DNA from: a candidate division WOR-3 bacterium
GTDB taxonomy: Bacteria > Hydrothermota > UBA3072
Direction of reading: 5' to 3'
DNA length: 64,000 nucleotides
NCBI GenBank assembly: GCA_039804165.1
Contig: JBDRZZ010000010.1
Span: 1-64,000 of the forward strand
In this document: positions 1 through 41,066 of the stretch, piece after piece
How the letters are laid out: every line of letters starts with the position of its first letter
Numbering within the stretch: position 1 is the first letter of the stretch
The notes under the pieces: model-generated
The model's database searches: none
What the model was told of the DNA's origin: nothing
Seen by the model: the letters and a program-made list of their open reading frames with translations, nothing else
Program-made: the position numbers and the translations under genes

Positions 1-1071
1 TCCTATTTAGAAATAAACAGAAAGATTATAGAGGGTATGAGGTATATTGTAATTGATGATACTGATATTCAAAAGAAATACGCGAAGAAAATGGAAGGTC
101 TTTGTCAAGTAAGAGATGGCGATAGAAAAGAAGAGAAAAGAAAAATTGGGAACGGATATCCTTTGTTAAATATTCTTGGGGTAGATAAAGACAGAGAAGA
201 TATGATAAGCATCTATAGTGAGTTATTCAGTTTTAAGAAATTCAATATGGAGAGTATCCATACCAAGGTATTTGAGGCATTAGAGAGAGTTTTCTCAGTT
301 GTCAAGAATTCCACTCATATTCTTGTTTTTGACAGAGCCTTTGATGCGATTAGAGTAATTGAATGGTTGATAGGCAAGGGTTTTTACTTTGTCCTCCGTT
401 TAAGGGAGCAGAGGCATTTATATATTGATGGAGAAAAAGTGGGATATGAAGGATGGCGGAGAATTCCTTTATTGAAGGAAGTTATCGTTGATAAAATCAC
501 GAGGGAAAATAGGATAAAGAAGGAACATTATTTAGCTGGAATAAAAGAAGTTTACCTTCCATATTCGGAACATCGAGAAGAGAAATTATGGTTGCTGGTA
601 ATGAAGAAAAAGCGAGTGGAAGGGGAAGAGAATGGATTCAGTTATTTTCTTGGTTGAGTTCCGGAAGAGATGACACCAGAAGAAGTATTCAGAGAAATGT
701 TGAGAGCGTATGGAGCGAGATGGAAAATAGAGGAATTTCACCGTCAAATGAAGCAAGATTTCAGAATAGAAAATGTTCAAATGAAGAGATACGAAGCCTT
801 AAGGAATATGATGACGATAGTATGGACAATAGCCAGTTATTTTGTTCTGCAAGGGTTTAAGAGACTAATGATAGAAATAATTAGGGAACGGATGAGCAAC
901 AAGAAACAAAGGCAATATCTCAAAAAGGAATGGAGGTATATTTATTATCGCATCTTTGAGGAGTTGAACTATTGGTTCACTCAAATCCAGTTCAGACGAG
1001 GAGTACGGTTGGAATCCAATGAGAAAACAAAATTTATAAGCCTCTTTCCCGAAATGGAGGTGTCTCTATGA
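1..1071 (+). pseudogene. IS4-like DDE transposase, broken by an in-frame TGA
   Basis: The reading frame is open from the left edge of the window, so the 5' end lies outside it. It stops at an in-frame TGA (655-657), resumes without frame change and ends at 1071. Visible DDE elements are the first Asp in IDDTDIQKKY, the second in LVFDRAFD, and the Glu in the IS4 signature YGARWKIEEFHRQMK near 705-750 (the Y-R-E-K pattern). Such proteins cut and rejoin insertion-sequence ends. Both halves are clean apart from the single nonsense codon, so the inactivation looks recent. TGA is a normal stop elsewhere in the window (mgtE and transketolase end with it), so recoding is unlikely. The family call rests on motifs only. 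Confidence 0.8.
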
Positions 1072-4973: not shown

Positions 4974-7211
4974 CTATTTCAACAAAGTCATTTTCTTAAC
5001 CTTAGAAACATTTCCAATTGTCATTTTATAGAAATAAATTCCTGAAGGTAAATTTTTAGAATCCCAACTAACTTTATAGGAACCAGCTTTTACATCCTCA
5101 TTAATCAATGTCGCTATCTCTTCCCCAAGCAAATTAAAAACTTTCAAAATAACATAGCTATCACGATAAAGAGAGTAACTAATCGTTGTAATTTCGTTAA
5201 ACGGATTTGGGTAATTCTGATCGAGTTTAAAGTCACAATTAACATCATCATTTTTTACAACATCAAGAATTCCACTAAGATCCTCTACAAAATAACTCAC
5301 TCCATCATACCATGTTCTACATACATCCCCAACCCTCGGTCCAGTTGTTCCAGTTTGAATTGCCTCATCATCAACAAAAACTTCTATGGTATCTCCAGAA
5401 AGAAGTTCAATTTTTCCAAGATAAGCTTGATATAAAAAAGTATTTCCACTCCCCTCAAGCTGAATCTGGGTTGTATGTGCACCTTCATCTACTTTCTTAG
5501 ATGCCATATGTCGGTAGATTTGCATATTCTGGTTACTAAGTCCTGCTTTAATTCTCCAATCTGCATTAGGATTTGCCCAAAAATTAACCCAAATATGATA
5601 AATTCCATCCATAGGAGCAATTATTTGTGTCTTTATAAGAGGAGCATCTTCTCCTCCTGCCTCAGCCGATGTCAAAACCATCTCACCATTTCCATAACCT
5701 GTCCTCCAATGCCAATTGTTGTCTACTGGTCCTTGATTGGCATCCGGACCAGTTGCCCCAAGAGTAGATCCATCAGCACGAAAAGTATTTCCTTCTGTGG
5801 CATCCACATAGTTCATTAATCCTATAGAATCTTCTCCTTCAATAATTCCAACAATAGCAGCGTCATAATTTTGAGCTGAGAGATAAGTCCCTCTAAACCA
5901 TAATAAAGCTGTCTTACCATTCTTCCAGGAAGGAATTATTGGACGAAAGTTATCCATTGTAGAATTCTCAGTTATTGGAGTCCAAGTCCAACTCAAACCA
6001 TTATCGGTGGTCACACCTTTAAAGATTTCACGACGATTTAAATTCTCATTATTTCGAGGATCTATATGGGTAGAAATGTATATTATATTTGGATCATTAG
6101 GATGAAGAGCTCCTAAACCTGTATAATCAGCCTCAGAAGAGTACATTTTCTTTCCGGCTTGTCCCAGGTAAGTATAAGACCAACTAACTCCATTAAATCT
6201 ACAGTAAATAAATGCATGATCTGGATCAATACTTTCATCATTACCATTTACAGCGTTATTTATCCTACAGGTCAAAATTGCAGCAATTGTTCCATCTTTG
6301 TACCTAACCAAATCAGCGTCCCAAATTTTTCTCATATAATCATCTCCAATTTTTGTATTATCTGGGAAAACAACTGTAAAACTGTTTTCTATTACCGGAA
6401 TATTAGAGCTATTATAGATGTCACTATCCACCTCATTTCCATAAGAGTCATAAGTTTTACCACCCTTGACATATCCATGATAAATGCTTGTATTGTAATT
6501 CCTTGGATGAGTTTCTGTGCATATAAAATCAATCCTATCAATTCCATTTCCCCAATATTTGAAATATCCTCTGCTATATCCACTAATATTACTTCTTGCT
6601 AACTGTCCCCCATAATCCCAGTTAGTTCCTCCGTCAGTAGAGTACATAAAATTTGGGCTACCATTGTCATGCCCACGAGCAAAATTGAACATCCTTCCTT
6701 CACTTGAAAGATAAAATAAATTAGAATAAGTAGTGTTATAGTTTACTCCACCAGGCCTCTCTGTATTCCAATTAAATACCTCTTGAGAGCCCCAATTTTC
6801 ACCATCAAAAATTCTATAATATGACAATTTTTCTGAATTGTGTAATGCATAGAAAGTAATATACCTCCCATCTGGACAAATAAGAAATGCAGGAGCATTA
6901 TGGTCATCACAATAGTTATCCATTAATGTGTATTTCTTCAAAGACATATTTTTAAGATCCATTATAACAGCTTCAATAAGCCCATCGCGGGGGCTTCCTC
7001 CAACTCCATTATCGCTTGCCACAGAACCTATTATTAATTTTCCTTCTACAGTGTCAATTATTGCTCGTTCATCTTGATACCAGCACCAAGCTCCATTCTC
7101 ATTAAATTGAATTAAGTTTCCATGAACAATATCCTTAACCTGAGCTCTTAGAGTAAAGACAAAAAGGAAAGCAAATAAGACTATTCTACCTATCTTAATA
7201 AATTTATACAT
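4974..7211 (-). CDS. secreted BNR-repeat protein with type IX-like C-terminal sorting domain
   Basis: The 745-residue protein has an N-terminal signal peptide (about 1-24, ending LRAQ). Residues about 35-460 match the BNR_4 type of beta-propeller, with the hallmark GAWCWYQDERAII near the start and an NAPAF box. Members of this family include polysaccharide lyases such as ulvan lyases, so carbohydrate binding or cleavage is plausible but unproven. A beta-sandwich-like segment (about 480-630) follows. From about 658 there is a Por/type IX A-type sorting domain (DQNYPNPFN, then LPSGIYFYK, ending KKMTLLK), which directs export across the outer membrane in T9SS bacteria. The start is supported by GGAGG upstream. 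Confidence 0.82.
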   Translation of the reverse strand: MYKFIKIGRIVLFAFLFVFTLRAQVKDIVHGNLIQFNENGAWCWYQDERAIIDTVEGKLIIGSVASDNGVGGSPRDGLIEAVIMDLKNMSLKKYTLMDNYCDDHNAPAFLICPDGRYITFYALHNSEKLSYYRIFDGENWGSQEVFNWNTERPGGVNYNTTYSNLFYLSSEGRMFNFARGHDNGSPNFMYSTDGGTNWDYGGQLARSNISGYSRGYFKYWGNGIDRIDFICTETHPRNYNTSIYHGYVKGGKTYDSYGNEVDSDIYNSSNIPVIENSFTVVFPDNTKIGDDYMRKIWDADLVRYKDGTIAAILTCRINNAVNGNDESIDPDHAFIYCRFNGVSWSYTYLGQAGKKMYSSEADYTGLGALHPNDPNIIYISTHIDPRNNENLNRREIFKGVTTDNGLSWTWTPITENSTMDNFRPIIPSWKNGKTALLWFRGTYLSAQNYDAAIVGIIEGEDSIGLMNYVDATEGNTFRADGSTLGATGPDANQGPVDNNWHWRTGYGNGEMVLTSAEAGGEDAPLIKTQIIAPMDGIYHIWVNFWANPNADWRIKAGLSNQNMQIYRHMASKKVDEGAHTTQIQLEGSGNTFLYQAYLGKIELLSGDTIEVFVDDEAIQTGTTGPRVGDVCRTWYDGVSYFVEDLSGILDVVKNDDVNCDFKLDQNYPNPFNEITTISYSLYRDSYVILKVFNLLGEEIATLINEDVKAGSYKVSWDSKNLPSGIYFYKMTIGNVSKVKKMTLLK

Positions 7212-27509: not shown

Positions 27510-29060
27510 ATGAAGACGAAATGTATTCTATTAATCTTATTTACTTTTTTTAACTTATTAGGTAAAAAAATGCCACTTGTTTATGATATTGAAAATACAG
27601 GGATGGATTGCCCTTTACCGGATTTTCTTTCTTTTAGTGAATTACCAACAATAAAAACTTTACCCGACCCATTTATATGGGCTGATAGTAACAAAGGTCG
27701 AATTAAAAGCTGTGACGATTGGCGATGTCGCCGTGCAGAAATTAGTGCTTTAATTCAACACTATGAACTTGGAACCAAACCAGAGCCTCCAACTAACTTA
27801 AAAGCAAGTTTCTCTGATACAATTGTAAAATTGCCTCCTATATTTGAAGGTGGAGATTCTATAACTTTGTCAGGTAAAATCCTCGCAATAACCATTGTCG
27901 AAAACGAAGATACATTCAGGTTGTATGCTCCTATAAGTCTCCCTGAAGGAGAAGGCCCTTTTCCTGCTGTAATTGGTGTAGGGTGGTCTCCCACTGGAAG
28001 CCTTCCATCAGATCTCTTTATAACTCGTGGGATTGCAACAATCCATTATATGGATTGGCAAGTAGCTAATGCTTGGTCTAACAAGCGTGGTGATGGAGCA
28101 TTCTTTAAGCTTTATCCGGATCCTAAAAGAGGTAAATTTATCGCCTTTGCCTGGGGTGTAAGTAGAATTATAGATGGCTTAGAAATGTGCCCTCAGGCCA
28201 AAATCGACCTCTCCCATTTAGCTGTAACAGGGTGTTCCTACGCAGGAAAGATTGCGCTTTTTTCTGGGGCATTTGATGAGCGAATCGCTCTCACAATTGC
28301 ACAAGAACCTGGAGGAGGAGGAGATGCAGCATGGCGAGTAACAGAAACATTACCAGGTAATAGAGAAACTCTAAAAAACGCTCAAGGTTTTGCCTGGTAT
28401 AGCCAAGATCTTTCTCAATTCAACTATGCAGTTACAAAATTACCTTTTGATCATCATGAAGTAATGGCACTGGTAGCACCACGTGCACTTTTAATAATTG
28501 GCAACCCGGATATGGAGTGGCTTGCAGAAGAATCTGGACATGTGGCGTGTAAGGCTGCTCATGAAGTCTGGAAAGCTCTTGGAGTGCCTGACAGGTTTGG
28601 ATTTTCTAAAGTCGGTCACAGTGACCACTGCGTCCTTCCAGACATTCAGAGGCCAGAAGTAATAGCCTTCATAGAAAAATTTCTCCTTGGTGATACTACA
28701 ATAAACACCAATGTGGAGATTAGCCCATACAATCCTGATCTTTCTAAATGGATTACCTGGGAGACACCAAAGTTAAAAGAACCACTTTCTTTTACAGGAG
28801 ATTTCTATTTAGATCAAAACCACCCTAATCCATTCAATTCCATTACCACCATAGAATATTATTTAAAAGAAGAAGCTAATGTTGAAATTTCTATCTATGA
28901 TATTATGGGCAAGAAAATCACAACTGTATTAAATAAAAGACAATGCGCAGGCAAACAAACTCTCATTTTTAATGGCTCTGATTTACCAAGTGGTATTTAT
29001 ATTTATACACTTAAAGTTGGCAAAACACTTAAGAGTAAAAAAATGGTGTTATTACGATAG
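27510..29060 (+). CDS. secreted CE15-like (glucuronoyl) esterase with type IX-like sorting domain
   Basis: The 516-residue protein has a short hydrophobic export signal (about 1-20). The alpha/beta-hydrolase body (about 50-395) resembles CE15 glucuronoyl esterases, which cut ester links between lignin and glucuronoxylan. Visible are the nucleophile motif GCSYAGK with S243, the acidic EPGGGGDAAWR region, MALVAPRALL and a His region VGHSDHC (H370 or H373). The usual Arg of GCSRxGK is Tyr here, so substrate or mechanism may differ. From about 431 a sorting domain follows (DQNHPNPFN, LPSGIYIYT, KKMVLLR), implying secretion to the surface. GAGGAGG precedes the ATG. Confidence 0.82.
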   Translation: MKTKCILLILFTFFNLLGKKMPLVYDIENTGMDCPLPDFLSFSELPTIKTLPDPFIWADSNKGRIKSCDDWRCRRAEISALIQHYELGTKPEPPTNLKASFSDTIVKLPPIFEGGDSITLSGKILAITIVENEDTFRLYAPISLPEGEGPFPAVIGVGWSPTGSLPSDLFITRGIATIHYMDWQVANAWSNKRGDGAFFKLYPDPKRGKFIAFAWGVSRIIDGLEMCPQAKIDLSHLAVTGCSYAGKIALFSGAFDERIALTIAQEPGGGGDAAWRVTETLPGNRETLKNAQGFAWYSQDLSQFNYAVTKLPFDHHEVMALVAPRALLIIGNPDMEWLAEESGHVACKAAHEVWKALGVPDRFGFSKVGHSDHCVLPDIQRPEVIAFIEKFLLGDTTINTNVEISPYNPDLSKWITWETPKLKEPLSFTGDFYLDQNHPNPFNSITTIEYYLKEEANVEISIYDIMGKKITTVLNKRQCAGKQTLIFNGSDLPSGIYIYTLKVGKTLKSKKMVLLR

Positions 29061-29229: not shown

Positions 29230-29861
29230 TTCCAAGGCAGGTGGTGGACACTTTGAGATATTTTAACATTCACAAGGTCTAATTCCAGATCAAGAGTCAC
29301 ATCCATTTTCTTCTCCAGAAATTTATCAAGATCCGCCGCAAACAAGTGGACAAGTTCAGGAGATTTGTTTTCTCAATAAGTATCTCTAAAGAGTTTATCA
29401 TTCTTGTTTGAGTTCTTTCTCATCGTATTAAAGAAAAATAGATAATTATTGACTTTATGAAAGAAATGCTCTTTTCCTTCAAAGACTTCTATATCAAAGA
29501 ATTCTCTTTTTCTTCTTACTCTGCAACCTTTTTTCTTTAGGTAATTCGTCTCCTCTCGCATGTAAAATCCTTCTGGCGGTTTCATGGGAAACAGGAACTT
29601 AAAAATCTCTAACCAATACCTTTGTTGACATTTTACCCGTCTCTTTGCGTTTTTCTATGTGTTTGGGTGTCTTATTATGGACTCCCTGATGTGCTCTGGA
29701 AGGGTTATATAAGCCTTCTATGCCACATTTATCAAATCTTTTAAGCCATTTGTAAACGATAGGTCTTCCTGTATTAAAATTACGGGCTACATCTCTATAG
29801 ACTCTTCTTTCGCATTTTTTACCATCTCAAAACGAAATTTTACCTTATTAAAGGGTTGCAT
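29230..29861 (-). pseudogene. transposase remnant of the decayed insertion sequence
   Basis: Starting at an ATG at 29861 (QPFNKVKFRFEMVK), the minus strand encodes a recognisable helix-turn-helix only after a frameshift: RDVARNFNTGRPIVYKWLK then GIEGLYNPSRAHQG. Further frame changes lead through HETARRILHARG to a C-terminal piece (FFFNTMRKNSNKND, 29373-29585) resembling the end of IS481-type integrase-core transposases. The DDE core between them is largely missing. At least two frameshifts and stops make it non-functional. Confidence 0.65.
29232..29255 (+). repeat. left terminal inverted repeat of the decayed insertion sequence
   Basis: CCAAGGCAGG followed by TGGTGGACACTTTG. The reverse complement of 30091-30111 matches it with one substitution and a 3-base gap. 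The adjoining target duplication (29211-29224) is separated from it by 7 bases. Confidence 0.72.
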
Positions 29862-30090
29862 ATTTTTATAACCTCGTCCTATTGATAATAGAACGTGTTT
29901 CCTCCTTTTTTTGTTTGTCTTTAAAAGGAGGATATTTATTTTAACCATAATTGCAACTCCTTAATTCTTCTAACCAACAATTTAGAACAATTTCGCTCAT
30001 CTCTCTATAAATCTCATCCTTTTTTTGAAAAATACCTTATATTTTTTAGGTTTATATTTAAATCTACCCTCTTTATCTCCAAAACCTCCA

Positions 30091-30111
30091 CAAAGTGTCC
30101 ACCTGCTTTGG
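30091..30111 (-). repeat. right terminal inverted repeat of the decayed insertion sequence
   Basis: On the minus strand it reads CCAAAGCAGG then TGGACACTTTG. With the outer bases (30112-30119) the end begins TGTTAAAT, consistent with the TGT tips common in IS481 ends. The second target-duplication copy follows at 30120-30133. Confidence 0.72.
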
Positions 30112-30138
30112 ATTTAACACTTACAATAAAAATTTCTA

Positions 30139-30236: not shown

Positions 30237-33200
30237 ATGAAATTTTATAAAATCACAATTCTATTTATATTTTCTTTGTTCTTAAAAGCTCAGTTCACCT
30301 TAAGAATTCATCAACCTCCTCCAAATCAGTTGAAAATTGAAGATCTCTGGTGGATTGATATAACCAATAGTTCTAATACTTCTCGGAATGTCTATCTACG
30401 TGGAGAAGTAAGAGAACTAAGAAAAGGTCTTTTATTTAGGGGTAGCACAAATGAATTTACAATTCCTTTAGGAAAGACAAGAATAAAAGCAACTGATATA
30501 AAAGAGTTAAGAGATAAATGGTATAGAGAAGAAGATAAAGACTTTATTGTAAGAACAGGCTCTGTTCCTCCAGGGGATTACACTGCCTGTGTGTATCTAA
30601 TAGATGCTTCTACAAATCAAGAACTCACTCACCAATGCATAAATATCTTGGTTCAACCATCTGGACCGCCAAGATTAATTTCCCCTAAAACAGGAGAACC
30701 TTTAAAAAATAAAAGACCTATATTCACTTGGACAAGACCTACACCTTTACCCCCAGGAGAAAAAGTTTTTTATAAAATTAAAATCGTTGAAATATACGAA
30801 GGGCAAACAAAAGAAGAAGCAATAAGATCTAATCCAAGTTGGTATGAAGAAGAGAGAATTAGTAAAACCACTTTCCAATATCCTATTAAAGGTAGAGAAT
30901 TGGATCCCCAAAAAAGATATGCCTGGCAAGTTCAAGCCTTTTATAAAGAAGGATTCCCTCTAGGTGAAAACAGAGGGTTAAGCGAAGTATGGGAAATTGG
31001 TCCTATTATAAAGGTAAAACCAATACCTTTACTACCTTCTTATTTAATAATAGGAGAATTTTTAATAAAAAATATCACTTATACTTCCTTCTCTCTTGAC
31101 TCTCTCTCTGGAGTAGGAGAATCTTTTTTCTTAGAAAAGAACCTCCCTACCCATTTTGGAGGTCCTATTTTTACTTTAACTCCTGTAAAATTCCAGGTAA
31201 ATTTTCAAAAATTGAAAGTGAATTGGGAAAAAGGAGATACTGGTAAGGTTATCTCAGGAGAAATAATTGAAAGTTTTCCTAATCCAATTGAGGTGAAAGT
31301 TGAAGGTTATCCTGTTTTTGTCCACAATGTTCATCTTATGCCAGACTCAGCAATTGGAATTATAGGAGTAAGTATTCCCTGCCTATATGATACAGCTGGT
31401 TGTAAAACTATTGAAATAGAATCTTTTAAAACAAAAATTTCGCCTATTTTAGACATATATAAAGAGCTTGAGTCTGGAGAAAGAGGCCCTTATAGATTGG
31501 GAGAAACAGGGATTCTAATTAAATCTAAGGAGAAAATAATAATTGATTTAAGCCATAAAATTACTCCCGGGAAAATAGAAATTCAGTTAAAAAAAGGAGA
31601 AACAGTGGAACAAACTCAACTTGATACTTGCAACACCGGTTATCTTTACGCACATTATATTTTCAACAACGCCGTTTCTACTCCAGCTGGATTCAACGCA
31701 ACATTTCAGCTCGCCGCTCCTTGGACATTCCATTCTTTAATCCCAATGGGATTTGAGGTTCACATAAATGAAGGGTATCTAAAAATAGATAGTTGTAAGA
31801 TAAAAGAAGGTAAATTTAAAAACGGTTATATTGTCCTTCCCTCAGACAGTAATGGAGTAACTGATGAGATGGGAAACCCAATTCAAGCTACTTATGATTC
31901 TCTCCTTGTCAACTCTTCCTTAGATATTGGAGGGAAGCTCAAAATAGATAAAGAGATGAGATGGGGTGGATTTGGACTTAAAGTCGTTCATAATTCTAAA
32001 ATTAAACTTCCAGCAACTTCTTATCAATACTACTCAATTGTAGAAAAAGACACTTTTGTCACAATAAATCCAGACACCTTAATAGGTCTTGTAATTTCAA
32101 GAATAGACCAGAGATACGACTTATTAACTGTTTATTCCAAAGACTCTAAAGCCCCTATAAGGTTTGAAAGATTAGGAGCCCCAGAAAACAAAACTGGAGG
32201 CGGATGGTTTAACCTTGAAATGCAAGGAATGAGAGGTTATTTATCCTCAGATAGTAGAACTCCTCCTTTAAATGTAAAACTCGGAATTCCAGGAAAAACA
32301 GGTTATTTATCAGACAGCTCTTTTAACACAACCTTCACTCATAATGAAATAGACTCAACTTTTATGAAATTCTGGTTTTTGGGAAATTCCTCTTTTAATA
32401 CCGATCTTAGAGGAAAATTCCAAATTCCTTATCCTTCTAATATAAAACCTCCTTTCAGAGAATTGGGGATCACTTCAACAGGAAGTTTTGCTGGGGGAAA
32501 TGCATTTTTCCCAAGCCTAGCTCTTACTTTAGATTACTGGGGAGTTGGGATTTCTTCTAAAAGAGGAGTAATTAGTGTTAAAAAAGGAGAAATTGTTTAC
32601 ACAAATGCAGAAATCTATGAACCTGTCCATTTCTCTAAAGGATTTAATATAATCTGGGGAGAAATGCTTTCTGATGGAGACTTGGGAGAATTTTACTTTA
32701 ACCACAATGCAGCGCACCAGAAATTTGATGGATTTCCAATAACACTTGATTCAGCTGCTCTATCAGAATTTGATCCATCAAGATCTGGAGAACTTGTCGT
32801 AAAATGTGGAATTCATTTTAATTTCTTTGGTGAACCTGATACACTCATCACAATCCATGATGCAAAATATTCAGCAACAACATCACCCTATTTTGGACGA
32901 ATCGTTTCCATAGAACCAAGCAAATTTTCTATTTATAGAAACTGGGGGTCTGGTCTTGCAAAAATGGACTTCAAAGAAGTTGGTTATGATGCTATAGATC
33001 AGAACGGATTCATTGGCTTGGGAAAGGTTGATTTTAACTTTTTTACATCCTCACCTATAAATGCAGAAATTGAGCTTGATAGTATTTATATAAAAATATG
33101 TATTTTAGAAACAAAGCAACATAATCTAAGACTCTCTTATGTTGAACTCACAAGTCTTGGAGAAATTTGGGGGTGCGCTGTGATTGAAGGAGACGAGCTA

Positions 33201-34058
33201 AATACAATAGCTTTGGGAGGAAGATTAGAAACTTCTACAGGAGGAGGCTTTGAACTCCTATCACCAAAAGCTGGAACTGGCGTTGAAGTGAAAATGGCAA
33301 TTACCCCAAACATCATAAATTTTGATGCAAACGGAATAATGTATCTATATGTCTTTGGTGTCGATCTTGAAATTAATGGAAGTCTGTTTCTTAAAACCGA
33401 TCTATCAAGAGGAAGTGTAGAAGGAGAAATAAAAGGAGCTTTTGATTTAAGTGCTTTAGGTTTAGATATTGAAGCAGATGGTCAAGCTAACTGGTGTTTT
33501 GCACCTCTTTCAAATTATATCCAAGGAAGATTGGCTGTTAATATATGCGAAGTCGGTTTCGGTAGTGGTCTTTCTGGAGGCCTATTTATAGGAATTAACG
33601 CCCCAAAGGATAAACTTTGGGTTCTTCGTGAAGGTAGTAGTCTTAATAGAAAGTTTGGAATTAACCTAAATTATATCCCGAATAATGTAACAGGTGTTTA
33701 CGTCTTTGGAGATACAGAATTTTCCATTAGCCTTGCCGGAGTTATTGAAGGAGGGATTGAAATGTATGCAGGGGTTGGGGCTTTCTTGAATTTAACCCCA
33801 ACAGAAGATGGTAGTATAATTTACAGCACTCTACTACCACTACCCTATGCTGTTGGAATAGTTGGAGTTTACATATATGGAGAAATCTTATGGGGAGTCC
33901 TCTCGGCTTCAGCTTGGGGAAAACTTGCAATGTATTTGGGAGATCCAATGGGATTTGAAGGAACTTTCGGTCTTCGTGCGTGTGCACTTTGGGTCTTTTG
34001 CGGAGAAGTAGAAGTAACCGCAGGAATGAATTCAAAGGACGGCTTCTATTTAGAATAG
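30237..34058 (+). CDS. giant secreted protein with fibronectin-like N-terminal region
   Basis: The 1273-residue protein starts at the ATG at 30237, with AAGGAGG at 30225-30231 and an immediate signal peptide (about 1-19, ending FLKAQ); the frame is open further upstream but without support. Residues about 20-140 (YLRGEVREL, PPGDYTACVYLIDA) recall the TANFOR-type N-terminal domain of some T9SS surface proteins; this is from memory. A fibronectin-like module (about 143-255: RPIFTWTRP, RYAWQVQAF) follows. The remaining thousand residues are beta-strand-rich, with a Gly- and aromatic-rich C-terminal half and no sorting domain. I do not recognise a catalytic motif. It leads a five-gene operon. Confidence 0.78.
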   Translation: MKFYKITILFIFSLFLKAQFTLRIHQPPPNQLKIEDLWWIDITNSSNTSRNVYLRGEVRELRKGLLFRGSTNEFTIPLGKTRIKATDIKELRDKWYREEDKDFIVRTGSVPPGDYTACVYLIDASTNQELTHQCINILVQPSGPPRLISPKTGEPLKNKRPIFTWTRPTPLPPGEKVFYKIKIVEIYEGQTKEEAIRSNPSWYEEERISKTTFQYPIKGRELDPQKRYAWQVQAFYKEGFPLGENRGLSEVWEIGPIIKVKPIPLLPSYLIIGEFLIKNITYTSFSLDSLSGVGESFFLEKNLPTHFGGPIFTLTPVKFQVNFQKLKVNWEKGDTGKVISGEIIESFPNPIEVKVEGYPVFVHNVHLMPDSAIGIIGVSIPCLYDTAGCKTIEIESFKTKISPILDIYKELESGERGPYRLGETGILIKSKEKIIIDLSHKITPGKIEIQLKKGETVEQTQLDTCNTGYLYAHYIFNNAVSTPAGFNATFQLAAPWTFHSLIPMGFEVHINEGYLKIDSCKIKEGKFKNGYIVLPSDSNGVTDEMGNPIQATYDSLLVNSSLDIGGKLKIDKEMRWGGFGLKVVHNSKIKLPATSYQYYSIVEKDTFVTINPDTLIGLVISRIDQRYDLLTVYSKDSKAPIRFERLGAPENKTGGGWFNLEMQGMRGYLSSDSRTPPLNVKLGIPGKTGYLSDSSFNTTFTHNEIDSTFMKFWFLGNSSFNTDLRGKFQIPYPSNIKPPFRELGITSTGSFAGGNAFFPSLALTLDYWGVGISSKRGVISVKKGEIVYTNAEIYEPVHFSKGFNIIWGEMLSDGDLGEFYFNHNAAHQKFDGFPITLDSAALSEFDPSRSGELVVKCGIHFNFFGEPDTLITIHDAKYSATTSPYFGRIVSIEPSKFSIYRNWGSGLAKMDFKEVGYDAIDQNGFIGLGKVDFNFFTSSPINAEIELDSIYIKICILETKQHNLRLSYVELTSLGEIWGCAVIEGDELNTIALGGRLETSTGGGFELLSPKAGTGVEVKMAITPNIINFDANGIMYLYVFGVDLEINGSLFLKTDLSRGSVEGEIKGAFDLSALGLDIEADGQANWCFAPLSNYIQGRLAVNICEVGFGSGLSGGLFIGINAPKDKLWVLREGSSLNRKFGINLNYIPNNVTGVYVFGDTEFSISLAGVIEGGIEMYAGVGAFLNLTPTEDGSIIYSTLLPLPYAVGIVGVYIYGEILWGVLSASAWGKLAMYLGDPMGFEGTFGLRACALWVFCGEVEVTAGMNSKDGFYLE

Positions 34059-34068
34059 GAGGTAATAG

Positions 34069-37068
34069 ATGTTTTTAATATTTCTTTTGGGAACCACATT
34101 AAATCTTTACACAAATGATGTTACAATTAAAAGGAAAGATACTACTCTCATTCCTACAATTGGGATGGAATTAAAAGAAATTGATACTATAATTGTTAAA
34201 GATAGCTCACGAGCCGAAATTCTTTATCCTGATAGTTCTATTATATATTTGGACGAAAACACGAAAATTACCACAAGCGGTAAAGAAAAACGTTCTATTT
34301 TTATGTCTTTTGGAAGAATCTGGGCTAAGGTTAAAAAGTTAATAAAAGGAGAATCTTTTGAAGTTAAAACTCCTCTCTCAATTTCTGGAATTATAGGAAC
34401 AGAATTTGAAGCTTATTATATAGAAGATAAAATGGAAGTAAAAGTCATTTCAGGAAATTTAAATTTAAGAAATATAGAAACAGGGAAAGAGACTATTCTA
34501 AAAGAAGGGAGAATGGCTTTAATTGAAAAAGGGATGGAAACAAAAATCCAGAAATTTAGAAAAGACCAGCTAAAACATTGGTATGAATGGAAAAAAGAAG
34601 ATATTGATTTCCTTTTAAGGAAACTATCCGAAGCTAAAAAATTAGGTGATGTAACAAAAGAAGAAGCTTTAACTTCCCAAATAAGAGCCCTTGCGGAAAG
34701 ATTAAACATGCTTGAAGAATACAAGAGAAAAATTGATGAAACTAAAGGTTTAGTTCCACTTTTAAAAGGGGAAATTAAGCCAACCGAAAAGGACTTCCTT
34801 TATGCTATAAGTGGTGATGTTTCAAGAGGAAAAACATTTATTCTACTTAAATGGCCTAAAAAGGAAGGAATTGAAGCCTATGATATTTACAGAATAGAAC
34901 TTCCCTCCACTTTAATTCCAGAAAAGCCAATCAATTCTGAACCCATCTCTATTATGAAAGATTGCGAAAAAATAAAGAAAATTATTCTTCCAGGTTCAGA
35001 AGAATACGAAGTTATTGTGAAGGTTTTATCTTCTTTGAAAACAAAAAGTGCAAAGGAAATTCTTCCTAAAACTCCTCTTGATGATGCTCTTTTAATAAAG
35101 CCTATTACACCATGTGCTATCTCCCTAATTTCAGAAACCAGCGAAGCTTACAAAAGCCTTCTTGCTTTAAGTAACAAATATTGGAAAATAGCTTTACTCC
35201 TTGGTCAAGCCTATCTTGATAGCAATGTGGTTGTTGGAAAAAAATATTTGTATTTAATAACTCCATCAAAGAAAACAGAAAGAGAAATTATCCCCATTGA
35301 CACTGCAATAGTTAAAGCTGGAAGCTTCACTCCTCTACCAGCTCCAACAGAAGTTACAGCTCAAGCTGGGGATAACAAGGTTCTTATTCGCTGGAATGAT
35401 GTAAAAAATTCTCTTGGTTATGAGATTTACAGAAGATCTCCCACTGAACCAGCGATCAAGATAAACGAAGCAGAAATAATGCAAAAATGCACTCTTGACC
35501 TTTATGGGAATAAAATCTCAGCAAAAAATTGCTTTATAGATTTCATGCGATGGGATGAAGGAGGGAATCCCAAAAAACACTTGGTTGGAACAGATTCTAT
35601 TTATGGCCCCTATAATGGAGTTAATTATTCTTATAAAATAAGAGGTTTAGATCTCCTCGGAAGACCAGGGGCTTTTAGCTCTCCGGTTTCTGCAAAACCT
35701 CAAGACAAAACACCCCCTGCAATTCCTTATGGAATAACTGTAGAAGCTTATCCTGATGGACTTTTAGCAAAATGGCATAGAGTCACCCACGATGAACTGG
35801 GACATCTTGAACTTGGAGGGATAAAAGGATATAGAGTTTACCGTTTTAACTCTGCCGATTCTCTTAAAGATAGTGTGCTTATAAAAGCTCTACTTCCAGA
35901 CACTTTTGGAGCTTTCCCATTCTTCAAAGACACAGATCCTTCTTTATTTTCTGCCTATGGAGAAAAGACTTTCTGGTATAGGGTAAAAAGTGTAGACAAT
36001 TCAGGAAATGTAAGTGGATTCTCCCCATCAGCTGGAAATCATCTTCCAGACACAACACCACCATCTCCTCCACAAGATCTAAAAGCAGAAAGCCACTCTA
36101 ATCATATTGCTCTTTCCTGGAAAAAACCAAATCCAGTTCCATCTGATCTTGCTGGATACAACATATATAGGGGAGTTTGCGGAGGAGATTCTGTTTGCGC
36201 TGATAGTGAGAGAATTGGCGAGAGAAAAGAATGGGTGTGTATAAAAACAGAATATAGAATCTATCCATTATATCTTGTGGGTAACAAAGATCACCCTGAT
36301 AGTCTCTCTTTCAATGACTATACTGTTCCAGAAGGCTCTCCAATTTGTTATAGGTATTCCATCAAAGCTTATGATAGAAGTCAAAATTTAAGCGACACTT
36401 CTAAGACTGTTTGTCAAAAACTAAGAGAAGAAACACCCCCACCACCACCTATTATCGTCGGTTTAAAAGCAAGAGACCGCGCAATAAAAATTGAATGGGT
36501 TGCCCCACCGGTTCAAGACTTATTTGGCTTTATTGTAGAAAGAGCGGAAAAAGAGGAAGGACCTTATAAGAGAGTAAGCGATACACTTATTTTTCCTGTA
36601 GCAATAGGTTGTGAAGACATTCCCCCTATAAACCGTTGGGCAGCTGACTCAGTTTTTTCCTTTCTTGATACGACAGTTATTGAAAAGAAGGTCTATTGGT
36701 ACAGAATAAAAGCGGCAGATTACCAAGGCAATATTGGTAAACCTTCCATTCCAATAGAAACATACACTTATAGTTTAAGAACTCCTCCTACTCCTTATAA
36801 CTTATCAGTTACTCAAGTTCCTGGAGAGTGCGCTCTACAGGTAACCTGGAGACCAACCTATGACCCAAAATACGCCGGGTTTGTTGTATTCAGAAGTATA
36901 GAACCAACAAAAGGGTATCGTCAAATAAGTCCTATAATAAGAGGAAATAAGTTTATAGACAAAAAGATAATTCCGAATAAAGAATATTGGTATAAAGTTC
37001 AGTATTTTGCTAAAAATGGAAACCGGTCTCCTACTGGAGGAGCAGAAAAGGGGAAAGCAACTCCTTGA
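34069..37068 (+). CDS. secreted FecR-domain protein with multiple fibronectin type III modules
   Basis: The 999-residue protein begins with a short signal-like segment. A FecR domain spans about 20-165 (DSSRAEILYPDSSIIYLDENT, GRIWAKVKK, FEVKTPLSISGIIGTEFE, GNLNLRN). A helical, charged segment spans about 170-240. About six fibronectin type III-like modules then start near 242, 427, 554, 667, 794 and 907, each with the Trp and the Tyr-x-I/V-Y-R pattern (ALSWKKP, YNIYRG). FecR domains of this kind, without a sigma factor or cytoplasmic part, are typical of secreted adhesion or scaffold proteins. It starts 10 bases after the giant protein gene, with AGGAGG. Confidence 0.85.
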   Translation: MFLIFLLGTTLNLYTNDVTIKRKDTTLIPTIGMELKEIDTIIVKDSSRAEILYPDSSIIYLDENTKITTSGKEKRSIFMSFGRIWAKVKKLIKGESFEVKTPLSISGIIGTEFEAYYIEDKMEVKVISGNLNLRNIETGKETILKEGRMALIEKGMETKIQKFRKDQLKHWYEWKKEDIDFLLRKLSEAKKLGDVTKEEALTSQIRALAERLNMLEEYKRKIDETKGLVPLLKGEIKPTEKDFLYAISGDVSRGKTFILLKWPKKEGIEAYDIYRIELPSTLIPEKPINSEPISIMKDCEKIKKIILPGSEEYEVIVKVLSSLKTKSAKEILPKTPLDDALLIKPITPCAISLISETSEAYKSLLALSNKYWKIALLLGQAYLDSNVVVGKKYLYLITPSKKTEREIIPIDTAIVKAGSFTPLPAPTEVTAQAGDNKVLIRWNDVKNSLGYEIYRRSPTEPAIKINEAEIMQKCTLDLYGNKISAKNCFIDFMRWDEGGNPKKHLVGTDSIYGPYNGVNYSYKIRGLDLLGRPGAFSSPVSAKPQDKTPPAIPYGITVEAYPDGLLAKWHRVTHDELGHLELGGIKGYRVYRFNSADSLKDSVLIKALLPDTFGAFPFFKDTDPSLFSAYGEKTFWYRVKSVDNSGNVSGFSPSAGNHLPDTTPPSPPQDLKAESHSNHIALSWKKPNPVPSDLAGYNIYRGVCGGDSVCADSERIGERKEWVCIKTEYRIYPLYLVGNKDHPDSLSFNDYTVPEGSPICYRYSIKAYDRSQNLSDTSKTVCQKLREETPPPPPIIVGLKARDRAIKIEWVAPPVQDLFGFIVERAEKEEGPYKRVSDTLIFPVAIGCEDIPPINRWAADSVFSFLDTTVIEKKVYWYRIKAADYQGNIGKPSIPIETYTYSLRTPPTPYNLSVTQVPGECALQVTWRPTYDPKYAGFVVFRSIEPTKGYRQISPIIRGNKFIDKKIIPNKEYWYKVQYFAKNGNRSPTGGAEKGKATP

Positions 37069-37079
37069 AAGGAGGATAA

Positions 37080-38663
37080 ATGAAGAAGATAAATTTAATC
37101 TTTGCCATTTTTATTTTTCTAGCAACAGCTTCTTTACAAAGCGGAGATGAGTTTACAAAACTCCACACCTGGAGATTCGAAAATGTAACTTACTTTACTG
37201 ATGCAAGTGGAAAAACAGTCTTACCTTGGGAAATATACACGCGGGCTTTTATAGGAATTTGCAAAGACTCAAATACTGCAAAGGTCCTTTGTCCTTTAGA
37301 TTATGCTTTTTATAAAGCTTATAATGCAGCCTTTGCCATTGCATCTGGAAATTGTTTTGGAATGAGTTTACTCGCAAACATTATATACAAAGAAGAAGGA
37401 CATCTTGGTTTTTGTAAACCTATTTATACTTATTCTGGTGATTATAATGGCCCTGCTTCAGCCAAATTATGCACCACAATTACAGTGATGCAATGTCATG
37501 AATGGAGTCATGCTGGAATTTTGTGGATAGCAGAAAATATAACTGGAACTCATCCAAAGGATCCAAATTACGCTTATAAACAAATTGAATATTATCTATC
37601 TATGGGAGACTTACCTCTTATTACCCTTGTAAAAAATGATAGTATGGTAGGACATACATTGATCCCATATAGATTAAAGGAAACTGCTTCGAAACGCTAC
37701 ATTTATTTATATGACCCAAATAAATGGTATCCTCCCGATTCGGATTTCTACGATAACAATAAAAATTACATAGAGATTGACCGCGGAAGTGGTAACTGGT
37801 CTTATGAATTTAAACCTGGAGAAATTTGGGGGTCTCCTGACGGTTACATTTTTGCAACACCAATGTCTATTGTAAAACCACCCTCTCGCAATCCTCTACA
37901 GCTTGGAGGAATAACTGATGCGTTAAATCATATTTTCTTAACAGGAGCAAATATAGCTCAAATCACAGATGGAGAAGGTCATAAGTTTTATAAAACAAGC
38001 GGATCTTCACACACCCGACTCTCAGATATAGAAGATAACCCTAGACTCAGAATAAAAAACTTATTTAGAATGCCAGTTAATTCCGCAAAAAGAGGCTCAA
38101 ATATAAAGGAAATTCCTGAGATTTATTTTGCAATTAATTCTTTAGGAAAAGATCTTAATTTTGAGATTGCTTCAAGAGGTGAAAAATACAATTTTGAAAT
38201 AGCAGGTAAGGATAATATTATAAAATTGACTTCTCAAGGAGGTCTTAATGGAAGAGACCTTTTAAACATAAAGAAACTTTCCACTCTTAACGAAGAAATA
38301 GAATTAACAACCAAAAGAAGCAATCCTAATTTTGAAATAGAAATCTATAAAAAACTCCCAGAAAAAGAGATGGCAAGAAGGTTTAAGATTTCTAATTTAA
38401 GTCTTCCAGGTTCTATACCTATTAAAATAAGATTATCTAAAGATAGAGAAAGTCTTCTTGTTAAAGGAGAAAAAGAATCAATTACTTGTAATCTTGAGAT
38501 TACCCAAGTTATAGGTAACAAAATAACAAAGATGCCAGTTAAAGTAATAAATGTTCCTGGTAAAGATTGGCATGAGGTCTCTCCAAGTGATTGGGATAAA
38601 TTAAATGATGCTACAATAAAAATAAACAAATTACCAATTACCCCTCAGCTCCCTAAAAAATAA
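37080..38663 (+). CDS. secreted protein with predicted papain-like cysteine peptidase domain
   Basis: The 527-residue protein has a signal peptide (about 1-20, MKKINLIFAIFIFLATASLQ). Residues about 60-260 show the papain-fold order of catalytic residues: Cys in SGNCFGMS (C92), His in VGHTLIPY (H192) and Asp in YLYDPN (D212). This suggests a cysteine peptidase or transamidase, although I cannot place it in a named family. The C-terminal half (about 270-527) is beta-rich and unrecognised. AAAGGAGG precedes the ATG, 11 bases after the FecR gene. It could process the two large neighbours outside the cell. Confidence 0.65.
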   Translation: MKKINLIFAIFIFLATASLQSGDEFTKLHTWRFENVTYFTDASGKTVLPWEIYTRAFIGICKDSNTAKVLCPLDYAFYKAYNAAFAIASGNCFGMSLLANIIYKEEGHLGFCKPIYTYSGDYNGPASAKLCTTITVMQCHEWSHAGILWIAENITGTHPKDPNYAYKQIEYYLSMGDLPLITLVKNDSMVGHTLIPYRLKETASKRYIYLYDPNKWYPPDSDFYDNNKNYIEIDRGSGNWSYEFKPGEIWGSPDGYIFATPMSIVKPPSRNPLQLGGITDALNHIFLTGANIAQITDGEGHKFYKTSGSSHTRLSDIEDNPRLRIKNLFRMPVNSAKRGSNIKEIPEIYFAINSLGKDLNFEIASRGEKYNFEIAGKDNIIKLTSQGGLNGRDLLNIKKLSTLNEEIELTTKRSNPNFEIEIYKKLPEKEMARRFKISNLSLPGSIPIKIRLSKDRESLLVKGEKESITCNLEITQVIGNKITKMPVKVINVPGKDWHEVSPSDWDKLNDATIKINKLPITPQLPKK

Positions 38664-38668
38664 AAGAT

Positions 38669-40309
38669 ATGAAAAATAGAATATTAATCCTCATTTTTTT
38701 CTCCTTTCCTTTTTATGCTGAATTAATTAAATTCTCAGGTTATACCACTTTATATGGAGAATATAATGATATAAATGGAGACACTCTAATTGAACCCACT
38801 ACACAAATGAGATTCTTTCTCAATCCAACAATATCAATCGCAGAAATGCCCATTTCTTTCGAACTATGTTTAAGCTCTTTAGAATCAAAAGCTCGTCAAG
38901 CTTTAAATAAATATAGAATAAGTATCCAACCCGAAAAACTATTAAAAGAAAAGGCCAACCTTCCAAGTTTTATATTTTCTATCTCTAACATTGAATTTGG
39001 AACCTGTTATCCATATTTTTCTTCTCTTACTCTCTCTGGGATTCCTCTAACTGGAGGTGTGTTTGAACTAAATCCAGGAATTTTCCATCTTGAAGGTGCA
39101 AAGGGAACTATACAAAGAGGTGTAACTGGGTCTGATTCAACCTTTACAGAATACGCTTATGAAAGAAGTATGTTTGCCTTTACGCTTGGATTAGGTAGGA
39201 AAGAAAACTCCCATTTACATTTTATTTTTCTTCATGGAATTGATGATACAAATTCTGTTTCTCCTTATTTTATTCCTTTAGGAAGTGATACGGATAGTGT
39301 AGAGGTTTTAAAACCAATGGAGAATTACCTCCTTGGAGCTCTTCTAAAACTTTCTTTCTTCAATAATAAGTTCAATATAGAATCAGAATTTGTAGGCAGT
39401 GAACTTGTAAGGGACATAAGGACTCCAGAGCTCCCTTCTTCTGAAATCCCCTCTTTTATTAAGAATCTCTTGCATCCGAAAATCAGTAGCTCTTTTGACT
39501 TAGCTTTTCTAATAAATTCCTCTCTAACCATTTACAATACAGAAATTAGTGGTTCACTCACTCTTGTAGGACCAGGTTTCTTTTCTTTTGGAAATCCATA
39601 TCAAAGAAATGACCTTTTGTCCTACAAAGGAGGCTTAAAACAAAATCTATTTAACAACACCCTATTTTTATTCGCCTCTCTTTCAAAAGAAAAAGACAAT
39701 CTAATTGGAATAAAAGGTTCAACAACTGCTTTCCAAACGCACGAATTAGGAATTGGTTTCAATTTTTCTGATTTTCCTTCTATCCAGTTTAGTTATAGCC
39801 CTTATAGTGAAAAAAATGATTCTATTAATTTAGATAGAAAGTGTGATATGTTTTCCATAAATACAGGATACAATTATAATTTTATGAATTTAAACAACAA
39901 CACCACTCTCTTCCTCTCTTATCAAAATTACGAAGACACTAATGATTCTTCAAATTATTCAGGCAAAGCTATTTCTCTTTATCATGACATCAGTTTTATA
40001 AAACCCTTAACAATTTCTTTTGAGATTGACTTCTCAGAAACAAATTATCCTGATACAGTAGAAAAAACTTTATCTCTTGACTTTGGAACCTATTACACTT
40101 TCCTTGAAAAATTAACAAATGGAATTGGAGTTAATATCTCTAAGGAAAAAGAAACTTCTAAAAAGGGTTTATATTTAAACTCCTCTCTATCTACCAAATT
40201 TCTTGGAAATTTAACCTTGGAGGTAGAAAGAAATTTTTATTCCGGAAAGCTTGAAAAAGAAAATTATGATGAATGGCGAATAATTGGAAGTGCCTCAAGA
40301 AAATGGTAA
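38669..40309 (+). CDS. predicted outer-membrane beta-barrel protein
   Basis: The 546-residue protein has a signal peptide (about 1-18, ending FPFYAE). The rest alternates polar and aromatic residues in strand-length blocks (YTTLYGEYNDI, IQFSYSPYSE, TTLFLSYQNYED) and ends in an aromatic residue (GSASRKW), the usual barrel signal for outer-membrane insertion. I do not recognise a family. It sits 5 bases after the peptidase-like gene and 4 bases before the receiver gene, so it may be the membrane anchor or exit pore for the operon's secreted proteins. Confidence 0.68.
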   Translation: MKNRILILIFFSFPFYAELIKFSGYTTLYGEYNDINGDTLIEPTTQMRFFLNPTISIAEMPISFELCLSSLESKARQALNKYRISIQPEKLLKEKANLPSFIFSISNIEFGTCYPYFSSLTLSGIPLTGGVFELNPGIFHLEGAKGTIQRGVTGSDSTFTEYAYERSMFAFTLGLGRKENSHLHFIFLHGIDDTNSVSPYFIPLGSDTDSVEVLKPMENYLLGALLKLSFFNNKFNIESEFVGSELVRDIRTPELPSSEIPSFIKNLLHPKISSSFDLAFLINSSLTIYNTEISGSLTLVGPGFFSFGNPYQRNDLLSYKGGLKQNLFNNTLFLFASLSKEKDNLIGIKGSTTAFQTHELGIGFNFSDFPSIQFSYSPYSEKNDSINLDRKCDMFSINTGYNYNFMNLNNNTTLFLSYQNYEDTNDSSNYSGKAISLYHDISFIKPLTISFEIDFSETNYPDTVEKTLSLDFGTYYTFLEKLTNGIGVNISKEKETSKKGLYLNSSLSTKFLGNLTLEVERNFYSGKLEKENYDEWRIIGSASRKW

Positions 40310-40313
40310 AATA

Positions 40314-41066
40314 ATGAGAAGGAAGAAAATCCTAATAATAGAAGACGATTACGACCTTTCTGCCTTAATGATAAGACACCTTCGTTCAGCCAATTATGAT
40401 GTTTTTAATGTGAGTGATGTAATTCAAGGCGTTCAGATTGCAAGAAAAGAAAAACCTGACTTAATCGTTCTTGATTTAATGATTCCGGGAGGTGGAGGAA
40501 TCACTGTGTTAGAAAGATTAAGTAGACTCCCCGAAACGCAAAATATACCAGTTATAGTGCTTACAGGGGTAGAAGATCCTGAAATAAAAGAAAGAGCTCT
40601 TAAAGCTGGAGCAAAGGAATACATAGAAAAGCCATATAATGCTCAAAAGCTTCTTAAAAGTATAGAAGAAAATATTAAAGAAGAAGAAAAAATAATTGAG
40701 GGTAGTTCAGGCCATATATTAATAGTGGATGATGATAAAGATTTCACAAAAAAACTATCCATAGATTTACAGAAAGCCAATTACAAAACTACCATTGCTT
40801 ATGATGTTGATCAAGGTCTAAAGATCGCAAGAGAGGAAAAACCAGACTTAATAATTCTTGATATATTAATCCCTGGTGGAGGTGGATTTACCTTTTTAAA
40901 AACCTTAAGAAGTATCATTTATACTCAAAACATCCCTGTTATTGTGCTCACTGCTGTAAAAGACGAAGAATATAAAAAGAAAATGATAGAGGCGGGTGTA
41001 AAATATTACATTGAAAAGCCTTACGACTTAAATATTTTACTAAATGCAATTGAAGTTGCTATTTAA
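40314..41066 (+). CDS. tandem two-receiver response regulator without output domain
   Basis: The 250-residue protein has two complete receiver domains: first about 5-122 with the acidic pair in IIEDD and phospho-acceptor D54 in IVLDLMIPGGGG; second about 132-250 with IVDDD and D183 in IILDILIPGGGG. Each ends with the switch Lys in a YIEKPY motif. No DNA-binding or enzymatic output is present. The ATG at 40314 lies 4 bases after the previous stop; the longer frame from 40284 begins at TTG inside the barrel gene. No kinase is encoded nearby. It probably works through protein contacts, for example in controlling secretion or motility. Confidence 0.88.
   Translation: MRRKKILIIEDDYDLSALMIRHLRSANYDVFNVSDVIQGVQIARKEKPDLIVLDLMIPGGGGITVLERLSRLPETQNIPVIVLTGVEDPEIKERALKAGAKEYIEKPYNAQKLLKSIEENIKEEEKIIEGSSGHILIVDDDKDFTKKLSIDLQKANYKTTIAYDVDQGLKIAREEKPDLIILDILIPGGGGFTFLKTLRSIIYTQNIPVIVLTAVKDEEYKKKMIEAGVKYYIEKPYDLNILLNAIEVAI

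What the first reader, a model, noticed from the sequence alone, without database searches (positions are those of the whole stretch)
30237..41066. Candidate new surface system: giant protein, FecR/fibronectin protein, papain-like peptidase, barrel and double receiver in one operon
Five genes with gaps of 4-11 bases encode two very large exported proteins, an exported predicted cysteine peptidase, a predicted outer-membrane barrel and a cytoplasmic two-receiver protein. The set could be an export or adhesion machine with an extracellular processing enzyme and cytoplasmic phospho-control. I know of no named system with this composition.
Basis: inference. Interest (0 to 1): 0.7.

Follow-up and report, generated by a model that had tools for sequence, protein, structure and literature searches.

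The report
Outer-membrane barrel with swappable surface proteins
In an uncultured WOR-3 bacterium, five neighbouring genes encode a predicted cell-surface apparatus: a giant exported protein, its companion peptidase, a fibronectin-like protein, a large outer-membrane barrel and a cytoplasmic switch; its core pairing of barrel and shared start domain recurs, with swapped bodies, across distant bacteria including Bacteroidota toxin loci.

Summary
In detail: five co-directional genes with gaps of 4-11 bases, exported except the last. The exact five-gene set occurs only in the genus. Its core is older. The papain-like gene and the giant's C-terminal half occur in the same 8 of 147 WOR-3 genomes (three families), with fibronectin-like and barrel genes beside them where the contig is intact. 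A wider unit underlies it: the giant's first ~260 residues form an Ig-like domain shared by proteins with unrelated bodies, and it co-occurs with a ~26-strand barrel (30 genomes with both, 2 and 6 with one, 109 with neither). All 25 nearby pairs lie on the same strand. The pair recurs outside the phylum, and exactly the same 4 of 72,556 plasmids carry both. In Runella the order is barrel, N-domain giant, fibronectin protein; in Emticicia the giant is annotated HNH endonuclease and followed by a SMI1/KNR4 gene. A second branch is N-domain, FecR, barrel, CHASE2 cyclase; the window's FecR-fibronectin fusion joins the branches. Most likely: a surface-display module whose barrel carries or anchors N-domain proteins, with FecR-type reporting. 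Closest known kind: TANFOR toxin loci of Bacteroidetes, whose paper mentions no barrel. Export is unproven.

The parts
30237..34058 (+). giant exported protein, 1273 aa: signal peptide, N-domain, all-beta body
   Evidence: AlphaFold2 of residues 148-1273 failed (pLDDT 38)
30237..31025 (+). N-domain (about 260 aa, two Ig/FN3-like halves) shared with proteins of unrelated bodies
   Evidence: alignment A4 of 40 members; Ig_Rha78A_N in 18/40, DUF928 in 9/40, TANFOR TIGR02542 in 9/40, all weak
32424..34055 (+). conserved C-terminal half of the giant body (544 aa), present only in genomes that have the peptidase
   Evidence: A9; 8/147 phylum genomes; no Pfam or PDB sequence match
34069..37068 (+). 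FecR domain fused to a fibronectin-type-III-like protein, 999 aa
   Evidence: Pfam FecR at residues 39-130; first ~220 residues 56% identical to the FecR protein next to a CHASE2 cyclase at G000:C17; the rest is homologous over full length to FecR-less FN3 genes of L124 and L127
37080..38663 (+). predicted papain-like cysteine peptidase, exported, 527 aa; C92, H192, D212
38669..40309 (+). outer-membrane beta-barrel, 546 aa, about 26 strands
   Evidence: nearest solved fold MtrB (6r2q_B) Z 19.6, rmsd 5.7 over 448 residues
40314..41066 (+). cytoplasmic protein of two receiver domains, no output domain, 250 aa
   Evidence: Pfam Response_reg twice; also in the same-genus genome

Best explanation
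The block is one version of a modular envelope apparatus. SHOWN: an Ig-like N-domain is carried by exported proteins whose bodies differ completely from locus to locus, and it is genetically tied to one family of large (~26-strand) outer-membrane barrels; in the window and seven other genomes the body is a conserved all-beta protein always accompanied by a secreted peptidase with a conserved Cys-His-Asp set; in the giant-type loci an FN3-like protein commonly completes the set. INFERRED: all four exported proteins leave by Sec; the barrel inserts in the outer membrane and the N-domain docks on or in it, so that the body is passed through or held at the surface; the FN3 protein is the stalk or periplasmic link; the papain-like enzyme trims or fixes the giant after export; the FecR domain reports assembly or load to the inner membrane, as its relatives probably do to CHASE2 cyclases, while in this genus the double receiver ties the apparatus to a phosphorelay.
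For: Co-occurrence of N-domain and barrel in 147 WOR-3 genomes: 30 both, 2 barrel only, 6 N-domain only, 109 neither; 25 nearby pairs, all same strand, 24 with the N-domain upstream. Bodies swapped: gingipain-like protease (L050), RTX-like repeats (L048), short repeats (L049), giants of 2100-3100 aa (L125, L126, L133). Outside the phylum 14 of 15 N-domain genomes also have the barrel. The same 4 of 72,556 plasmids carry both; Runella order is barrel, N-domain giant, FN3. Peptidase and giant body: identical 8 genomes. Barrel fold pLDDT 89.9; its best solved matches include barrels that enclose or pass proteins: MtrB, FimD/PapC ushers. Ndom-FecR-barrel-CHASE2-cyclase operons (L054, L129, L187, L191, L192, L194, L196, L197), and the window's FecR-FN3 fusion links that branch to the giant branch.
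Against: No direct evidence of transport, surface location or contact between N-domain and barrel. The barrel is also structurally close to solute channels (AlgE, OprD type), so it could be a receptor or porin. Two genomes have the barrel without a detected N-domain, and several N-domain genes stand alone (L051, L052). The giant body could not be modelled. No cytoplasmic partner of the receivers is known.
Confidence: 0.5

Rival explanations
1. Primarily a cell-surface signalling system: the barrel is a receptor, the N-domain protein its periplasmic or surface partner, FecR the relay, and the CHASE2 cyclase (in the window genus the double receiver) the output; giant bodies are ligand-binding add-ons.
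For: The short form Ndom-FecR-barrel-CHASE2 cyclase recurs in at least 8 loci within and outside the phylum. The published FecR/CHASE2 operons act in signalling or biofilm control (PMC5192318, PMC9239204). The window genome keeps a CHASE2 cyclase-FecR pair at G000:C17.
Against: Most giant-type loci show no FecR, cyclase or receiver gene (L048, L049, L125, L126), and Bacteroidota relatives carry toxin bodies.
Confidence: 0.25
2. The giant is a polymorphic toxin of the TANFOR class, delivered onto competitors, and the block is a contact-dependent weapon.
For: Related N-domain proteins next to the same barrel family are annotated HNH endonuclease with a SMI1/KNR4 gene in Emticicia, and deaminase-domain genes lie nearby in Bergeyella; N-domain members weakly match TIGR02542.
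Against: The window giant's C-terminal half is conserved across three families, the opposite of polymorphic, with no toxin domain and no recognised immunity gene; TIGR02542 is not reached above its cut-off anywhere in 390 genomes.
Confidence: 0.1
3. Ordinary nutrient-uptake or polysaccharide porin operon with accessory surface proteins; the co-occurrence reflects shared ancestry only.
For: AlgE and OprD-type channels are among the structural neighbours of the barrel.
Against: Linkage to the N-domain persists through body swaps, in other phyla and on plasmids.
Confidence: 0.1

Closest known systems
TANFOR-domain polymorphic toxins of Bacteroidetes (Jana et al. 2020, PMC7073777)
   Same: Large Sec-exported proteins with a conserved N-terminal domain, often with FN3 domains, and exchangeable bodies; neighbourhoods enriched in FN3 (COG3401) proteins; Bacteroidota relatives found here carry toxin-like and immunity-like genes.
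   Different: Window giant has a conserved non-toxin body and a peptidase partner; match to TIGR02542 is sub-threshold; the constant barrel partner is not mentioned in that paper (0 occurrences of 'barrel').
FecR/CHASE2 envelope signalling operons (Campylobacterota, PMC9239204; Burkholderia BiofilmReg, PMC5192318)
   Same: FecR-domain exported protein associated with CHASE2 sensors and, in Burkholderia, a response regulator; WOR-3 and other genomes here add N-domain and barrel to a CHASE2 cyclase-FecR operon.
   Different: No CHASE2 gene at the window locus; FecR is fused to a fibronectin-like protein; the receivers have no output domain.
MtrB barrel of the MtrCAB electron conduit
   Same: About 26 strands; best solved fold (Z 19.6, 448 residues).
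   Different: No Pfam match to the MtrB family in the barrel and no multihaem cytochrome among the five proteins.
Two-partner secretion (type Vb)
   Same: Exported passenger with a conserved N-terminal domain encoded next to a dedicated outer-membrane barrel.
   Different: Barrel has no POTRA/Omp85 match and the N-domain is Ig-like, with no Pfam haemagglutinin-activation-domain match.

Membership tests
TANFOR polymorphic toxins | N-terminal match to TIGR02542 above its cut-off (67 bits) | tested here: not met
   Window member: no match; 9/40 family members match weakly, best E 3.2e-5; best 24.5 bits in 390 genomes
TANFOR polymorphic toxins | Polymorphic C-terminal toxin domain with immunity gene | tested here: not met
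   Window giant: C-terminal 544 aa conserved over three families, no Pfam hit; next genes are FN3 and peptidase
TANFOR polymorphic toxins | FN3 (COG3401-type) proteins in the neighbourhood | tested here: met
   P0002 and the FN3 genes of L124, L127, L185, L225, L227
FecR/CHASE2 signalling operon | FecR domain in an exported protein | tested here: met
   Pfam FecR E 1.4e-14
FecR/CHASE2 signalling operon | CHASE2 sensor encoded in the same operon | tested here: not met
   None at the window locus; the CHASE2 cyclase-FecR pair lies on another contig, G000:C17
papain-like cysteine peptidase | Cys, His and Asp/Asn in that order, conserved | tested here: met
   C92, H192, D212 invariant in five members down to 24% identity; no family-level Pfam or PDB match
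papain-like cysteine peptidase | papain-like fold and proteolytic activity | not tested
MtrB/MtrCAB conduit | large ~26-strand barrel fold | tested here: met
MtrB/MtrCAB conduit | multihaem cytochrome partner genes | tested here: not met
   None of the five proteins has a Pfam cytochrome match or a run of CXXCH motifs by reading
Two-partner secretion (type Vb) | Omp85-type barrel with POTRA domains | tested here: not met
   No Pfam POTRA or Omp85 match in 32 barrel members; the predicted fold is a barrel starting at residue 19

The most novel reading that the evidence does not exclude
The barrel family is the dedicated outer-membrane translocon or anchor of a previously unrecognised two-partner surface-delivery system, used in WOR-3, Bacteroidota and other phyla to display bodies as different as adhesin-like proteins, gingipain-like proteases and polymorphic toxins, and it would explain how TANFOR-type toxins leave the cell.
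Probability: 0.3. Interest if true: 0.85.

Novelty: new variant of a known kind. Interest (0 to 1): 0.63.

Why it matters
It gives a constant, testable partner (a large barrel, annotated as hypothetical protein or not annotated in the four plasmid records) to a class of giant exported proteins whose export route is only hypothesised, and it joins that class to FecR/CHASE2 signalling through a natural domain fusion. If confirmed, it adds an outer-membrane delivery route found across several phyla.

Tried and rejected
Whole giant in genome contigs: no relatives. AlphaFold2 of the giant (residues 148-1273, 5 sequences) failed, pLDDT 38, so nothing is claimed on its fold. PDB sequence searches with barrel, peptidase, N-domain and giant-body profiles: no meaningful match. 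TIGR02542 search in 390 genomes: two weak WOR-3 hits only, so the relation to TANFOR stays suggestive. The type-I barrel (L191) found nothing in plasmids. 'All five genes are one conserved machine' was rejected: FecR and double receiver are lineage additions. The structural list also holds porins; the absence of other folds there proves nothing. Literature searches for DUF928 or TANFOR with a barrel, and for Stahlbacteria secretion, gave nothing relevant.

Full report
OBSERVATION. A same-genus genome has all five in the same order and orientation (L003; the four exported proteins 60-66% identical). That genome is the WOR-3 MAG Zod_Metabat.145, so the window belongs to phylum WOR-3 (NCBI Caldifarciminota).

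PARTS. FecR and two receiver domains are clear Pfam matches; FN3 is sub-threshold and the giant, peptidase and barrel have no family above cut-off. The peptidase keeps C92, H192 and D212 in five members down to 24% identity. The barrel is predicted with mean pLDDT 89.9 and about 26 strands (strands counted from the listed elements); the best solved fold is MtrB (Z 19.6, 448 residues, rmsd 5.7), followed by AlgE and the FimD/PapC ushers among others. The giant's body could not be modelled.

CONSERVATION OF THE BLOCK. The peptidase profile hits 8 of 147 phylum genomes and the giant-body profile hits the same 8, none other. In L124, L127 and the contig pair L137/L138 the order is peptidase, giant, a ~740-aa FN3 gene, barrel (for L137 the FN3 gene is inferred from size and position). 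In L124 and L127 the FN3 gene lacks FecR, and L124 has no receiver downstream of the barrel. Thus a four-part core spans three families; FecR fusion and double receiver were seen only in the window's genus.

THE WIDER UNIT. The first ~260 residues of the giant form a domain found on proteins with unrelated bodies: a gingipain-like protease (L050, by motif), RTX-like repeats (L048), short repeats (L049) and giants up to 3138 aa (L126). In the phylum this N-domain and the barrel co-occur in 30 genomes, occur singly in 2 (barrel) and 6 (N-domain), and are both absent in 109 (Fisher p 5e-23, which ignores relatedness). Twenty-five barrel loci have an N-domain gene within about 13 kb, all on the same strand, 24 of them upstream. 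In some N-domain-only cases the barrel is weak or probably lost at a contig end (L151, L148, L133).

OUTSIDE THE PHYLUM. Of 15 genomes with the N-domain, 14 also have the barrel. In six of these loci (L187, L191, L192, L194, L196, L197) and in L054 and L129 the operon is short N-domain protein, FecR protein, barrel with an N-terminal extension, CHASE2 cyclase (CHASE2 and cyclase domains confirmed by Pfam for L191). Among 72,556 plasmids, Bacteroidota N-domain and barrel queries hit exactly the same four records: Emticicia, Persicobacter, Runella and Bergeyella. Runella has barrel, N-domain giant and FN3 gene in a row, with a T9SS-sorted giant two genes further on. Emticicia has barrel, N-domain protein annotated as HNH endonuclease, and SMI1/KNR4 gene. 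Persicobacter has barrel, FN3 and N-domain giant on one strand.

MEANING. The N-domain family weakly matches TANFOR (9/40, best 3.2e-5), DUF928 (9/40, best 1.3e-6) and Ig-like models. TANFOR proteins are described as polymorphic toxins whose neighbourhoods are rich in FN3 and T9SS substrates, with export hypothesised to use T9SS (PMC7073777); no barrel is mentioned there. The Bacteroidota loci found here match that description and add the barrel. The curated TANFOR cut-off is not met, so I do not file the window protein as TANFOR. The window's FecR is 56% identical to a FecR protein encoded directly after a CHASE2 cyclase elsewhere in the same genome, so the FecR-FN3 fusion links the signalling branch and the giant branch.

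MECHANISM. Best reading: the barrel holds or exports the N-domain protein, the FN3 protein links, the peptidase matures the giant, FecR reports to the inner membrane, and the double receiver is a local phospho-input or output. Shown: gene linkage, body swapping, barrel fold (prediction), conserved catalytic residues. Inferred: every physical step. Rivals are a signalling receptor, a toxin weapon and a porin operon.

VERDICT. The finding is real and better supported than its author could know, but it has to be recast: the unit is N-domain plus barrel, not the five genes. New variant of a known kind, interest 0.63.

Noticed in passing
window 29232-30115: Degenerate insertion sequence directly upstream of the block: imperfect inverted ends (CAGGTGGACACTTTG type) and, on the minus strand, broken remnants that look like a transposase helix-turn-helix.
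   Followed up: partly
window 27510-29060 and 4974-7211: Two exported proteins end in the 'DQN(Y/H)PNPFN...' tail typical of T9SS type A sorting domains, although this phylum lies outside Bacteroidota; whether T9SS core genes exist here was not tested.
   Followed up: no
G000:C17 (L055:4346-7544): CHASE2 adenylate/guanylate-cyclase-like gene followed at once by a 392-aa FecR protein; FecR relatives at 49-56% identity to the window FecR domain occur in G001, G002, G004 and G005.
   Followed up: partly
L117, L122, L115, L114/L050: N-domain genes are followed by a ~460-aa protein with a gingipain-propeptide-like start and a PKD-like end, before or after the barrel: apparently a protease-type variant of the module.
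   Followed up: partly
L125:6911-8755, L126:12074-14014: A 614-646 aa TPR protein sits between the FN3 gene and the barrel in the 2-3 kaa giant variant.
   Followed up: no
window 37-1071: Transposase in two adjacent reading frames at the start of the window, probably frameshifted.
   Followed up: no
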